From JBGPLH01 sp041486365 [NCBI: Thermodesulfobacteriota bacterium] (GTDB lineage: Bacteria; JAUYMQ01), in contig JBGPLH010000216.1 in assembly GCA_041486365.1 (NCBI GenBank), positions 1 to 5,784 of the forward strand: a stretch of 5,784 nucleotides of DNA. Reading direction: 5' to 3'. The notes under the pieces are model-generated. The model was not told where the DNA came from. It saw only the letters and a list, made by a program, of their open reading frames with translations, and searched no databases. Positions 8 through 5,650 of the stretch are shown here, in pieces. The position numbers and the translations under genes were made by a program. Position 1 is the stretch's first letter. Every line of letters starts with the position of its first letter.

Positions 8-1084
8 TCAGGACGGGTTCTTGCGCGAGAGCTCCTCGTTGATGATCTCCTGGAACGCCTCCGGCGGCTGGGCGCCCGAGAGCATCCGGCCGTTGATGAA
101 GAAGGCCGGCGTGCCCGAGACGCCCACCGACTGGCCGAGCTTCACGTCGGCCGCGATTCCGGCCTGGAAGCGGCGCCCGGCGAAGCAGTCGCCGAACTTG
201 TTCTCGTCCAGGCCGACCTCCTTCGCGTACCGTTTCAGGTCCGCGTCCTCGAGCCCTGCACCTCCGAACAGCTTCTCGTGGTACTCCCAGTACTTCCCCT
301 GGTCCCCCGCGCAGCGCGCGGCCAGCGCCGCGGGCATCGCGCGCTGGTGGAAGGCGAGGGGGAAATCCTTGAACACCCACCGGATCTGCGTCGGATACTT
401 CGCCTTGACCGTGGACAGTGTCTCCTGCGACCGGCGGCAGAACGGGCACTCGTAGTCGGAGAACTCGATGATCGTTATCGGGGCGTTCTCGGCCCCGCGC
501 GCCGGCGAGTCGTTCACCGGTACCTCCAACCGCGGCGGCTGCAGGAGCACCGTCACCTGGGCGCTCTTGCGCAGGGCGGCCACGAAGGCTTCGCGCGCCT
601 GACGCTGCTGGCGCTCCTGCAGGAACATCTTGATCCGGTCCTTGAGCTGGTTGTAGTCGCCCTGGATGCGACTCTTGTTCTCGCCGTAGAACTTCTTCGT
701 GTCTTCCTCGGTGACGGGCCCGATCTTCGAGGTGACCTCCTTGGCGAGAAGTTCGTCGGAAGTCATTCCCTTCGCCTTGGCCTGGGCCTCGATCAGCTTC
801 TTGTCGATGAGGCGCTTGAGCCCTTCCTGCTTGATCGCGTAGATCTGCGACTCGATCGCCTTGAGATCCTGGTCCACTTCCGCGCGCAGTTCGCCTTCGG
901 TGACCACCTGGTCCCCGATCTTCGCCACGGGCGTGTTCGGGTCCACCGAAGCGCCGGTGGAAGAGGCGCCCGGCGCGGAGGGCGCCTGTTCCTTCTTCGG
1001 TCCGCAGGCCGTCAGCAGGAGTGACGCCGAGAGCGCCAGCAGGGCAGGGAAAATCCAGAGGGACCGCTTGGAATACATCTTCAT
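8..1084 (-). CDS. Lipoprotein with SurA/PpiC-like N-terminal region and DsbA-like thioredoxin domain
   Basis: The 358-residue protein is probably an extracytoplasmic thiol-disulfide oxidoreductase or isomerase anchored by lipid. Residues 1-26 form a lipoprotein signal (basic KRS, hydrophobic core, lipobox L24-T25-A26-C27). A Pro/Ser/Ala-rich linker follows, to about residue 51. Residues 52-180 resemble the N-terminal helical domain of SurA/PpiC chaperones ('VAKIGDQVVTEGEL', 'LIDKKLIEAQAKAKG', 'VTEEDTKKFY'); no PPIase domain follows. Residues 190-350 are a DsbA/BdbD-type thioredoxin fold: 'ITIIEFSDYE' leads into the active site C213-P214-F215-C216, and the cis-proline is P326 in 'GVSGTPAFFING'. 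The 'ARCAGDQGKYWEYHEKLF' helix and a further downstream Cys are typical of the Thioredoxin_4 branch. All catalytic elements are present. The first Met is chosen because AGGAGG lies 9 bases upstream; Met3 is a weaker alternative. Transcribed divergently from the GT-C genes. Oxidase versus isomerase activity and the client proteins cannot be read from sequence. Confidence 0.93.
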   Translation of the reverse strand: MKMYSKRSLWIFPALLALSASLLLTACGPKKEQAPSAPGASSTGASVDPNTPVAKIGDQVVTEGELRAEVDQDLKAIESQIYAIKQEGLKRLIDKKLIEAQAKAKGMTSDELLAKEVTSKIGPVTEEDTKKFYGENKSRIQGDYNQLKDRIKMFLQERQQRQAREAFVAALRKSAQVTVLLQPPRLEVPVNDSPARGAENAPITIIEFSDYECPFCRRSQETLSTVKAKYPTQIRWVFKDFPLAFHQRAMPAALAARCAGDQGKYWEYHEKLFGGAGLEDADLKRYAKEVGLDENKFGDCFAGRRFQAGIAADVKLGQSVGVSGTPAFFINGRMLSGAQPPEAFQEIINEELSRKNPS

Positions 1085-2871: not shown

Positions 2872-4736
2872 GCGAGCGCGCGGAGAAGCCGGCGGCGGCC
2901 GGCGGGGACCCGGACCGGCTGGAGATCACGGTGCTCCTCGGCGCGCTGGCCGCCGGCATCGCGCTCCGCCTCGCGTTCCTCCACGACCTGCGCCACGCGG
3001 TGCTCTTCCAGCAGCCCGTCATCGACTCGCTCGAGTACCTCCTCATGGCGCGCCGGATCCGGGAGGGGCATCTGCTCTGGGACGAGGTGACGAACCACTC
3101 GCCGCTCTATGCCTACTGGCTCGCCGGTCTCCTCCATCTCTTCCGGGACAACCTCGATCACCTGCGGGCGGCGCAGGCGATGGCGGTGGGGGCCGGCACG
3201 ACGCTGTTCGTGTGGTCCATGGCGCGGCGGTGCGCGGGGCCGCTGGCGGGCGGCGTGAGCGCGTGGCTCGCCGCCACGCTCTGGCCGCTCGTCTACCACG
3301 ATACGGAGATCCTGGTCGAGCCCCTCGCCATCGTCCTCAACGCGGGCGCTCTCTGGGCGCTCATGGTCGCGCGGGGCCGTCCCACGGTCCTCGCGCTGGC
3401 GGGACTCCTGCTCGGGCTCTCCACGATCACGCGCCCCAATGCCGCGGCCTTCGTTCCCATCGCGGCGCTCTGGGCCGGGTGGCAGGCGTGCGCGTCCCGC
3501 GGTGAAGAGGGGCCCCGCGCCGCGGGGCGGCCCCCTTCGCGCCGCGCGCGGGCCCCCGTGGCGGCGGCGGTCGTCATCCTAGGCGCGGCGCTCGCGGTGC
3601 TCCCGGTGCTCCTGCGAAACCACGCGGTCTCCGGCGCGTGGATCCTTCAGACCAATAGCGGCCTCAGCTTCCATGAGGGGAATCGGCCCGGAGCCGACGG
3701 CACGCCCAACGTGCGGCCCGGGCGCCCCTGGGCGCTGCTCGCCGCCATGGCACCCGCCCGCGGGCTGACGTCGCCCGCGGCGCAGGACGCTTTCTATCGC
3801 GGATTGTCGCTTCGGTGGTGGCGGGAGGCGCCGGATCGGGCGTTCGCCCTCTTCGTGAAGAAGGTCTTTCTCTTCTGGAACGCCTACGAGACGCGCCCGA
3901 GTCTGGACGTCTACTATTTCCGGAGCCTGTCTCCGACCCTCTCGCTCCCCTGGCCCGGCTTCGGCACGCTCGCGCCGCTCGCGCTCCTGGGCGCCGGCGT
4001 CGTCCTCCTCCGGCGGCGGCCGGAGACGGATCTCCTGCTGCTGTACGTGCTGGTCTACACGCTCGCGACGGCGGCGTTCATGGTGAGCAGCCGCTACCGG
4101 ATCCCGATCGTGCCGGCGGCTCTCCCGCTGGCGGGGGTCGGCGTGGCGGACCTGGTGCATCGCCTCCGTTCGGGAAACGCGCGCCGGGTGCTCGCGCCGA
4201 TGATGGTGCTGATCGCGCTGGCGGTGGCGGTCCGCTGGACGCCCTCGGACCTTCTCGTCCGGGACAACGCGGAGGAGCACTACAACGAGGGGACGCGCTT
4301 CATGGAGATCGGGCGGTTCCCGGAGGCGGAACGCGCCTTCCGCAGGGCCTGGGGCGAGCGGCAGGACGACGGCCGGGTTGCGAGCAATCTGGGCGCGCTT
4401 CTCGTGCGAACCGGCCGCGCGCCGGAGGGGCTGGGCTGGCTCCGGAACGCGGTGCGGCTGTACCCCGAGTTGCCGGAGGTGTGGGCCAACCTGGGGATGG
4501 CGGCGCTACTCACGGGACACCCGGAGGAATCGGAGAAGGCGTACCGCGAGAGTCTGCGAATCGATCCGGACGTCGGCGCGACCCGGCTTGGCTTCGGGTT
4601 CCTTCTCCTCGCCCGCGGTGATCGCGACGGGGCCGCCCGGGAGTTTGTCGAGGCGCGGCGCCTGGGAACGACGCTTCCACCGGAGGCGATGGCGGTCATG
4701 GCCCCGCCGATGGCCCCGCTGGTGGCGCCACCTTGA
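2868..4736 (+). CDS. GT39/ArnT-like membrane glycosyltransferase with C-terminal TPR repeats
   Basis: A 622-residue protein with a multi-pass N-terminal membrane part (about 18-460) and a soluble C-terminal TPR part (about 466-610). The first transmembrane helix leads to 'VIDSLEYLLMARRI', with D53 and E56 placed like the GT39/PMT first-loop acidic motif. 'HSPLYAYWLAGLL', 'TEILVEPLAIVLNAGALWAL' and 'TRPNAAAF' are also family-like. The tail has three to four TPR units ('HYNEGTRFMEIGRFPEAERAFRRA', 'VASNLGALLVRTGRAPEGLGWLRNAVRLYP', 'VWANLGMAALLTGHPEESEKAYRESLRIDP', 'ARLGFGFLLLARGDRDGAAREF' region). It likely moves a sugar from a lipid carrier to a lipid, glycan or protein acceptor; the substrate is unknown. 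The GTG start at 2868 is chosen because it overlaps the upstream stop and has AGGAAG before it. The same frame stays open back to 1212, but that stretch is an Arg/Pro/Gly-rich shadow of the DUF2079 gene. The protein ends in a Met/Ala/Pro-rich tail. Confidence 0.85.
   Translation: MSERAEKPAAAGGDPDRLEITVLLGALAAGIALRLAFLHDLRHAVLFQQPVIDSLEYLLMARRIREGHLLWDEVTNHSPLYAYWLAGLLHLFRDNLDHLRAAQAMAVGAGTTLFVWSMARRCAGPLAGGVSAWLAATLWPLVYHDTEILVEPLAIVLNAGALWALMVARGRPTVLALAGLLLGLSTITRPNAAAFVPIAALWAGWQACASRGEEGPRAAGRPPSRRARAPVAAAVVILGAALAVLPVLLRNHAVSGAWILQTNSGLSFHEGNRPGADGTPNVRPGRPWALLAAMAPARGLTSPAAQDAFYRGLSLRWWREAPDRAFALFVKKVFLFWNAYETRPSLDVYYFRSLSPTLSLPWPGFGTLAPLALLGAGVVLLRRRPETDLLLLYVLVYTLATAAFMVSSRYRIPIVPAALPLAGVGVADLVHRLRSGNARRVLAPMMVLIALAVAVRWTPSDLLVRDNAEEHYNEGTRFMEIGRFPEAERAFRRAWGERQDDGRVASNLGALLVRTGRAPEGLGWLRNAVRLYPELPEVWANLGMAALLTGHPEESEKAYRESLRIDPDVGATRLGFGFLLLARGDRDGAAREFVEARRLGTTLPPEAMAVMAPPMAPLVAPP
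3512..3528. repeat. G/C hairpin in a cytoplasmic-loop segment of the GT39 gene
   Basis: GCCCCGC-GCC-GCGGGGC can form a 7-bp stem with a 3-base loop. It encodes part of a Gly/Pro/Arg-rich loop ('GEEGPRAAGRPPSRRARAP') between two membrane segments. It resembles in size, but not in sequence, the hairpins in the Smr gene. It may be simply a by-product of base composition. Confidence 0.3.
4698..4733 (+). repeat. Three 12-base imperfect tandem units at the end of the GT39-TPR gene
   Basis: Three consecutive 12-base units encode MAPP-MAPL-VAPP, the last residues before the TGA. The first two units differ by one base (gccccgccg versus gccccgctg after each ATG); the third is more diverged. This looks like a small in-frame repeat expansion making a Pro-rich tail with no evident domain role. 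Confidence 0.55.
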
Positions 4737-4849: not shown

Positions 4850-5650
4850 ATGGCGCGGCGCAAGAAGTCCGACCAGCGTTTCAACGCTCCCTTCCGGGAT
4901 CTCGATAAGCGTCTGGGATCACCCAGGCCCGCCCATTCCAGGGACGAGAAGCCGGCGCCTCCCTCATCGAATTCGGCCCGCGCTCCGCGCGGGACGTCTG
5001 GTTCCGAGTCGGCCCGCGCTTCGCGCGGGACGTCTGGTTCCGAGTCGGCCCGCGCTCCGCGCGGGACCTCCGGTGTTTCCGAACCGCTCTCCGGCCCCGA
5101 CGACGACGCCACGCTCTTCGATCGCGCCATGGACGGTGTGACGCCGGTCGATCGCGGCCGCCGCCGGCGACCCGGCCCGAAGCCTGTCGAGGTCGCGCCG
5201 GGGCGCGCGCCCGACGACGAGGACGGCGAGGCCTACGCGATCCTGGTGGGGCTGGTCTCGGGCGAGGTCCCCTTCGACATCACCGAGACGGGCGAGTACG
5301 TCGAGGGGTTCGTGCCCGACTTCGATCGGCGGCAGCTACGCAGGCTTCGCGCGGGCGAGATGTCGGTCCGCGACGAGCTCGATCTGCACCGGATGACCAG
5401 CACCGAGGCGCGCGCGGCACTCGACCGGTTCATCCTCGGCGCGGTGGACAGGAGGCTCTCCTGCGTGCGCGTGGTGCACGGACGCGGCCTTCACTCGAAG
5501 GAAGAAGGGCCGGTCCTCAAGGAGAAGGTCGTGCGGTGGCTCTCGGGGAGGCGCCTGGGCAAGGTGGTCCTGGCCTTCACGAGCGCCCGCCCCGTAGACG
5601 GCGGGACCGGGGCCCTCTACGTCCTTCTGCGAAGGCGGCCCAGACCCTGA
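4850..5650 (+). CDS. Smr-domain protein (MutS2/SmrB-type C-terminal domain) with repeat-containing linker
   Basis: A 266-residue protein, predicted cytoplasmic (no signal or membrane segment). Residues 1-22 are basic ('MARRKKSDQRFNAPFRDLDKRL'), a common opening for stand-alone Smr proteins. Residues 23-125 are a low-complexity, probably disordered linker rich in Arg, Ser, Pro, Gly and Asp. It includes three 12-residue repeats at 42-77. Residues 128-170 ('EAYAILVGLVSGEVPFDITETGEYVEGF') lead into the Smr domain (about 172-263). The three hallmark motifs are present: D178-L179-H180 in 'LDLHRMT', H210-G211-R212-G213 in 'VHGRG', and 251-255 GGTGA followed by 'LYVLLRR'. Smr domains cut or bind nucleic acids; E. 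coli SmrB cleaves mRNA at collided ribosomes and MutS2 Smr acts on branched DNA or ribosomes. Which role applies here is not known. The canonical LDLHG glycine is arginine (R181). The gene has its own promoter upstream and a TonB-like gene 22 bases downstream. Confidence 0.93.
   Translation: MARRKKSDQRFNAPFRDLDKRLGSPRPAHSRDEKPAPPSSNSARAPRGTSGSESARASRGTSGSESARAPRGTSGVSEPLSGPDDDATLFDRAMDGVTPVDRGRRRRPGPKPVEVAPGRAPDDEDGEAYAILVGLVSGEVPFDITETGEYVEGFVPDFDRRQLRRLRAGEMSVRDELDLHRMTSTEARAALDRFILGAVDRRLSCVRVVHGRGLHSKEEGPVLKEKVVRWLSGRRLGKVVLAFTSARPVDGGTGALYVLLRRRPRP
4973..5080 (+). repeat. Three tandem 36-base units, each with a palindromic core, inside the Smr gene
   Basis: Units are 4973-5008, 5009-5044 and 5045-5080. 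Units 1 and 2 differ at one base. Unit 3 matches unit 1 for its first 23 bases and then diverges, including what looks like a one-codon insertion. Each unit holds CCCGCGC-loop-GCGCGGG (4977-4993, 5013-5029, 5049-5065), a perfect 7-bp stem with loop TCC, TTC and TCC. The unit length is a multiple of three, so the frame is kept and each unit encodes 'SARAPRGTSGSE' or a close variant. Codons such as tct, ggt and gct are less G/C-ending than those of the surrounding gene. Confidence 0.9.

What the first reader, a model, noticed from the sequence alone, without database searches (positions are those of the whole stretch)
4973..5080. Palindromic 36-base repeat units embedded in frame in an Smr gene
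Each unit contains a perfect hairpin (CCCGCGC/GCGCGGG) and the array sits in the disordered linker before the Smr domain. Two units are 35/36 identical while the flanking linker shows no such repetition, and their codon endings are less G/C-biased than the gene. This suggests recent expansion or insertion. Small palindromic elements that enter coding regions in frame are known in Rickettsia (RPE elements). Here the unit could be a genome-wide mobile palindromic repeat that tolerates translation, or a local slippage product stabilised by the hairpin. In mRNA the three adjacent stable hairpins could also slow ribosomes, which is intriguing in a gene whose family includes a ribosome-collision nuclease; that link is speculation.
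Basis: partly seen in the sequence, partly recalled or inferred. Interest (0 to 1): 0.6.

Follow-up and report, generated by a model that had tools for sequence, protein, structure and literature searches.

The report
In-frame tandem repeat in Smr gene
A stretch of 36 DNA letters has been copied head-to-tail three times inside a flexible-looking part of a bacterial gene, most likely by copying slippage; its hairpin looks like a by-product of G+C-rich DNA, so this is an ordinary coding repeat.

Summary
The array is real: three head-to-tail 36-nt units at 4973-5080 (units 1 and 2 match at 35/36), in frame in an Smr gene (4850-5650). It must be translated, because no in-frame ATG/GTG/TTG lies between residues 1 and 94, while SmrB-like sequence begins near residue 85. 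The palindrome is not exceptional: such 7-bp hairpins are expected several times in a window this G+C-rich, and 5.6% of random synonymous recodings of the unit give one as good. The predicted mRNA fold pairs unit 1 with unit 3 rather than forming three hairpins; recoded controls are often as stable. In viral contigs the 17-base core occurs only with unrelated flanks, and longer pieces were not found. Of 57 Smr genes from relatives of a Treponema genome, 8 carry other in-frame tandem repeats (TRF score 50 or more), all before the Smr domain, mostly without a strong hairpin. Best reading: a local coding minisatellite made by slippage or unequal recombination in a permissive N-terminal extension, not a mobile palindromic element. 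The source genome and close relatives were not available, so genome-wide copy number and copy-number change could not be tested.

The parts
4850..5650 (+). Smr-family gene, 266 aa, DLH and HGRG motifs kept
   Evidence: ORF; PF01713 83.1 bits, residues 177-261; alignment to a solved SmrB chain (named YfcN) over residues 85-261
4850..4972 (+). N-terminal extension, residues 1-41 (MARRKKSDQRFNAPFRDLDKRL... then low-complexity)
   Evidence: absent from the two SmrA/SmrB-type proteins aligned
4973..5008 (+). repeat unit 1, SARAPRGTSGSE
5009..5044 (+). repeat unit 2, SARASRGTSGSE, 35/36 to unit 1
5045..5083 (+). repeat unit 3, SARAPRGTSGVSE: diverged 3' part with one extra codon (GTT)
   Evidence: gap placed by eye
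4977..4993 (+). hairpin in unit 1, 7-bp stem and 3-nt loop
5013..5029 (+). hairpin in unit 2 (TTC loop)
5049..5065 (+). hairpin in unit 3
5102..5647 (+). SmrA/SmrB-like core: segment aligning with the N-terminal part of SmrB (residues ~85-104), then the Smr domain (residues 177-261)
   Evidence: naming residues ~85-104 as a ribosome hook is inference

Best explanation
It is a coding minisatellite. A 36-nt stretch of a low-complexity N-terminal extension was duplicated head-to-tail, most likely by replication slippage or unequal recombination. The duplicates were kept because 36 is a multiple of three and the extension tolerates length change. Shown: the array, its register, that it must be translated if the SmrB-like core is made, and that the pre-Smr region of other Smr genes repeatedly carries other in-frame arrays. 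Inferred: slippage as the mechanism, near-neutrality, and any help from the hairpin as a polymerase pause or misalignment aid (possible but not needed).
For: Exact 36-nt head-to-tail register, inner units 35/36, divergence mainly at the 3' edge of the array. No in-frame ATG/GTG/TTG between residue 1 and residue 94, while SmrB-like sequence starts near residue 85. Survey of 57 Smr genes from relatives of a Treponema genome: 8 of 57 have arrays with TRF score >= 50, all before the Smr domain (15,198 nt against 14,559 nt; 0 of 57 in the domain), all 8 periods divisible by 3, units unlike each other by eye; codon-shuffled linkers gave a mean of 0.35 genes (max 2) in 40 trials. The strongest of these (18 nt x 4.8) is absent from the 14 other readable relatives of its genome. 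The hairpin is near chance level: a Markov model gives a mean of 3.62 such hairpins per window, against 4 independent ones if the three copies count once; 5.6% of synonymous recodings give a stem of 7 bp or more.
Against: No close orthologue was found, so graded copy-number change at this locus, the direct sign of slippage, was not seen. The unit has the longest perfect stem of the nine arrays compared (7 bp; next 5, 4, 4), which leaves room for a hairpin role. Unit 1 and unit 3 are identical over their first 23 bases, which include the hairpin, while their changes lie downstream. The TRF line of 50 was set after a first look at 40; at 40-49 three more rows appear, two in linkers with periods 10 and 16 (not multiples of 3) and one in an Smr domain (score 48).
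Confidence: 0.88

Rival explanations
1. Translated mobile palindromic element (like REP/RPE): a dispersed palindrome inserted in frame and then tandemly amplified.
For: Perfect hairpin in each unit; intragenic palindromes, some in frame and argued to sit in flexible linkers or loops, are known (PMC3733652 passages). On the minus strand units 1 and 2 carry CGTC at the foot of the stem, a loose likeness to CGTC-tagged repeats.
Against: The 17-mer core had 30 matches in 29 viral-contig stretches (several of them duplicates of one another), none with the unit's flanks; a permuted palindrome of the same composition had 55 stretches and a non-palindrome 20, so 29 is ordinary. A 22-mer and a 19-mer of the unit had none. 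Stem 7 and loop 3 do not fit CGTC repeats (stems 8-9, loops 4-5, A/T at the first two stem positions, head-to-tail dimers negligible). Third-position G/C is no lower than in residues 1-41. None of this replaces a search of the source genome, which was not possible.
Confidence: 0.05
2. Conserved functional protein motif: the 12-residue repeat SARAPRGTSGSE is selected, for example as an RNA- or ribosome-binding basic tail or as a spacer of tuned length.
For: All three point differences between unit 1 and unit 3, once the extra codon is gapped, are synonymous (codon list). Extensions before SMR domains matter in SmrB, where a helix contacts uS2 (PMC10897456 passages).
Against: Three changes are too few to show selection, and the one change between units 1 and 2 alters the residue (P to S). 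The array lies upstream of the part that aligns with SmrB. The other Smr arrays share no sequence with it by eye. The two SmrA/SmrB-type proteins aligned have no such segment.
Confidence: 0.05
3. mRNA structure that slows ribosomes in a gene related to a collision nuclease (autoregulation).
For: Minimum free energy -69.3 kcal/mol for 136 nt, z -1.69, 10 of 200 shuffles as stable.
Against: The minimum-energy fold pairs unit 1 with unit 3 around unit 2, not three hairpins. Triplicated synonymous recodings are as stable in 222 of 500, single units in 129 of 500. The protein scores better with the SmrA model than with SmrB, both below cut-off.
Confidence: 0.02

Closest known systems
Coding minisatellites / intragenic tandem repeats in disordered regions (for example the amino-acid tandem repeats of Borg elements, PMC9879509, passages)
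   Same: head-to-tail near-identical units, length divisible by three, disorder-type residues
   Different: here only three units at one locus; copy-number variation not seen because no relative is available
CGTC-tagged palindromic repeats, including Rickettsia RPE-4 and RPE-6 (PMC3733652, passages)
   Same: short perfect palindrome inside a reading frame
   Different: stem 7 and loop 3 instead of 8-9 and 4-5, no A/T at the stem foot, pure head-to-tail array, no dispersed copies known
PARCELs (PMC2996958, abstract and section 6 part 1)
   Same: tandem coding repeats with dyad symmetry
   Different: PARCEL unit is 25 residues with a conserved hydrophobic, amphipathic pattern; here 12 residues, hardly any hydrophobic
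SmrB / SmrA (SMR-domain proteins)
   Same: the host protein aligns with a solved SmrB chain over residues 85-261 and keeps DLH and HGxG
   Different: carries an extra N-terminal extension of about 84 residues that holds the array; below the SmrA and SmrB model cut-offs

Membership tests
coding minisatellite | head-to-tail tandem copies of a unit of 10 nt or more | tested here: met
   TRF period 36, 2.8 copies, score 183
coding minisatellite | unit length divisible by three, array inside the translated part | tested here: met
   36 nt, in frame; no in-frame ATG/GTG/TTG from residue 2 to 93
coding minisatellite | lies in a disordered region | tested here: inconclusive
   composition S/A/R/G/T/P/E; no helix or strand and pLDDT below 50 over nearly all of the array, but the model used one sequence and is poor almost everywhere (mean pLDDT 46.3)
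coding minisatellite | copy number differs among close relatives | not testable with these tools
   no source genome held; genome contigs gave only two distant spirochaete loci
CGTC-tagged repeats / RPE-4, RPE-6 | stem 8-9 bp, loop 4-5 nt, A/T at the first two stem positions | tested here: not met
   stem 7, loop 3, stem foot CC/GG against passages
CGTC-tagged repeats / RPE-4, RPE-6 | unpaired CGTC (or TGTC/CCTC) at one end | tested here: not met
   read from the sequence: minus strand GACGTCCCGCGC in units 1 and 2, where the last C of CGTC is already in the stem; unit 3 reads GGTC
CGTC-tagged repeats / RPE-4, RPE-6 | many dispersed copies in one genome | not testable with these tools
   no genome held; one locus with exact cores in 5784 bases
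GTAG-tagged REPs | stem 5-13 bp and loop 2-20 nt | tested here: met
   stem 7, loop 3 against the table
GTAG-tagged REPs | GTAG at one end | tested here: not met
   read from the sequence: no GTAG in any of the three units on either strand
PARCEL | 25-residue unit with periodic hydrophobic residues, amphipathic | tested here: not met
   12-residue unit SARAPRGTSGSE against abstract and section 6 part 1 of PMC2996958
Smr domain protein | PF01713 above gathering score, DxH motif | tested here: met
   83.1 bits against 25.7; D178-L179-H180 and H210-G211-x-G213 invariant in the three-protein alignment
SmrA or SmrB equivalog | NCBIfam model above cut-off | tested here: not met
   NF033154 82.3 of 180, NF003432 42.9 of 128

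The most novel reading that the evidence does not exclude
The 36-nt unit is one member of an undescribed family of short palindromic repeats dispersed in this unidentified lineage, able to enter reading frames because every copy is open and translatable, and amplified here in the permissive N-terminal extension of an Smr protein.
Probability: 0.05. Interest if true: 0.5.

Novelty: new member of a known kind. Interest (0 to 1): 0.15.

Why it matters
By itself it matters little: it is a three-copy coding repeat. The more useful by-product is that the region before the Smr domain repeatedly gains other in-frame repeats (8 of 57 genes). This suggests that the length of this segment is free to drift in a protein family that includes the ribosome-collision nuclease SmrB, which can be tested directly.

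Tried and rejected
Own-genome search: none held. The one genome-contig scan, spent on the Smr protein, found only two spirochaete loci. A plasmid locus did not lead to a whole genome, only to its own record, which gave no match. Smr protein against plasmids: 81 records, all under 60% identity, none covering 80% of the query. DUF2079 protein against plasmids: no match. Array DNA against plasmids at E <= 10: 20 records, best E 0.3, that is chance level; two are Gemmatirosa plasmids. Smr protein in viral contigs: none. Structure prediction from a single sequence is too poor for a fold search, so none was run. PARCEL and RPE/REP membership were considered and rejected on unit size, stem, loop or tag. 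Ribosome pausing was rejected on the folding controls. The hairpin as a required driver of expansion was rejected because only one of the eight comparison arrays has a stem of 5 bp or more. A paper search on palindromes with slippage, hairpin and tandem duplication listed two papers, neither used.

Full report
What is there. The window (5784 bases, 71% G+C) holds a DsbA-like lipoprotein gene on the minus strand, a DUF2079 membrane protein gene, a glycosyltransferase-like gene with TPRs, and at 4850-5650 an Smr gene of 266 residues. Inside the Smr gene lie three head-to-tail 36-nt units at 4973-5080, in frame, encoding SARAPRGTSGSE / SARASRGTSGSE / SARAPRGTSGVSE. Units 1 and 2 match at 35/36; unit 3 matches unit 1 at 28/36 without gaps, because of an extra GTT codon. 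With that codon gapped, the differences of unit 3 from unit 1 are three synonymous third-position changes, all 3' of the hairpin; the one change between units 1 and 2 is in the hairpin loop and turns P into S. A diverged edge copy next to near-identical inner copies is what slippage or unequal recombination would leave; the gap placement is mine.

Is it translated? The two SmrA/SmrB-type proteins aligned (one Xanthomonas plasmid protein and one annotated SmrB) begin near residue 80 of the window protein. Solved chains named YfcN, which I recall to be SmrB, align from residue 85 (E 1.3e-4); the SmrA model aligns from 86; tblastn rows in plasmids start between 72 and 85, so the weakest of them reach into the last unit. 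There is no in-frame ATG, GTG or TTG from residue 2 to residue 93 (one CTG at residue 22), so the core can only be reached through the array. The array therefore sits in an N-terminal extension upstream of the SmrB-like part. The segment DDDATLFDRAMDGV aligns with the N-terminal part of SmrB; that this is the uS2-binding hook described for SmrB (PMC10897456, passages) is inference. The window protein keeps DLH, the DxH motif that the same passages tie to catalysis, and whose residues they say SmrA of gammaproteobacteria lacks. It scores higher with the SmrA model than with SmrB but is below both cut-offs.

Is the hairpin special? Three tests say no. First, a first-order Markov model of the window yields on average 3.62 perfect hairpins with stem >= 7 and loop 3-5 (maximum 12 in 100 runs); the window has 6, or 4 if the copies count once. 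Second, 5.6% of 20,000 synonymous recodings of the unit with the window's own codon usage reach a stem of 7 or more. Third, the minimum-energy RNA fold of 4960-5095 pairs unit 1 with unit 3 around a unit 2 hairpin, z -1.69, with 10 of 200 shuffles as stable; triplicated recoded units are as stable in 222 of 500 and single recoded units in 129 of 500. A pattern search with up to 3 mismatches did find more matches than shuffles (11 against a mean of 1.39, largest 5), but 6 of the 11 are the array itself read on both strands.

Is it a mobile element? The direct test, the source genome, was not possible. Indirectly, the 17-mer core occurs in 29 stretches of viral contigs (30 matches, several stretches duplicates of one another); none shares flanks with the unit, and many look like terminators or other free-standing hairpins, which is my reading of the flanks. 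A permuted palindrome had 55 stretches and a non-palindrome 20. A 22-mer and a 19-mer of the unit had 0. Plasmids gave only chance-level matches. The CGTC-tagged repeats that include RPE-4 and RPE-6 have 8-9 bp stems, 4-5 nt loops, A/T at the first stem positions and negligible head-to-tail dimers (PMC3733652, passages); the unit fits none of these. GTAG-tagged repeats allow its stem and loop sizes, but the unit has no GTAG. PARCELs need 25-residue amphipathic units (PMC2996958, abstract and section 6 part 1).

What do other Smr genes show? The only genomes reachable were relatives of a Treponema genome found through the Smr domain: 177 of 194 matched. Their kinship is not told; I take them for spirochaetes. 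I took 60 places: the first 54 rows of that list in order, plus 6 picked by hand further down. Three gave no Smr frame, leaving 57 genes; one of them (L142) is cut by its contig's end. With TRF score >= 50, 8 of 57 carry arrays (7 of 52 from the ordered rows, 1 of 5 from the hand-picked ones). All 8 are before the Smr domain, with periods 12, 12, 15, 15, 18, 18, 21 and 33, and units unlike each other and the window's by eye; 0 of 57 lie in the Smr domain. Codon-shuffled linkers give a mean of 0.35 genes, maximum 2, in 40 trials. I set the line at 50 after a first look at 40; between 40 and 49 there are three more rows: periods 10 and 16 in two linkers, not multiples of three, and period 15 in one Smr domain (score 48). 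Longest stems in the eight arrays are 5, 4, 4, 3, 3, 3, 2 and 1 bp, so a hairpin is not needed. The clearest case, PAPGQQ units in G137 (18 nt x 4.8), was not seen in the other genomes checked: of 20 loci fetched, 15 gave a readable Smr frame, 14 of them not G137's own, and none has it. Most of these genomes are also in the 57-gene survey, and the nearest protein is only 53% identical, so this says little about recent copy-number change. Gene starts in this survey were chosen by rule and some may be wrong.

Limits. I do not know the lineage of the window. The surveyed Smr proteins are distant (identity 47% or less over the listed matches) and have a different N-terminus (MDFGDIL...), so the survey shows that the region before an Smr domain tolerates in-frame repeats, not the history of this array. 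The structure model is from one sequence and poor (mean pLDDT 46.3). Literature: six searches were run; the papers used came and were seen as passages, except PMC2996958 (abstract and one section part). Passages of PMC2635572 gave no structural definition of RPEs and were not used. One search (Smr domain, tandem repeat, disordered, N-terminal extension; three of four terms) found 54 papers; none of the 8 listed held the term 'Smr domain'.

Verdict. An ordinary in-frame coding minisatellite in a permissive N-terminal extension of an Smr protein; the palindrome is most likely incidental to G+C-rich codons for A-R-A-P-R-G.

Noticed in passing
window 3493-3563: Another G+C-rich hairpin and near-repeat stretch (GCCCCGCGCCGCGGGGC; TRF 22 nt x 1.9) encoding a low-complexity RGEEGPRAAGRPPSRRARAP loop in the glycosyltransferase-like gene, which shows that such hairpins are not peculiar to the array.
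   Followed up: partly
L122 (G137:C46), gene bases 120-206: Smr gene of a high-G+C genome with an 18-nt unit repeated 4.8 times (PAPGQQ) before the Smr domain; the array itself holds a 5-bp stem.
   Followed up: yes
L031 1817-1843 and 1990-2016: A 36% G+C viral contig carries two same-orientation copies, 173 bases apart, of a longer palindrome (AATGTCCCGCGCTTCGCGCGGGACATT).
   Followed up: no
window 8-1084 (minus): DsbA-like thioredoxin lipoprotein with a SurA-like N-terminal segment in the same chain (the SurA match is just under its Pfam cut-off).
   Followed up: no
L120-L178 Smr proteins: Many of the surveyed Smr proteins share an N-terminus like MDFGDILxxWD and a WLxxxGxxDKD motif flanking the variable, repeat-prone segment; possible ribosome-binding parts.
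   Followed up: no
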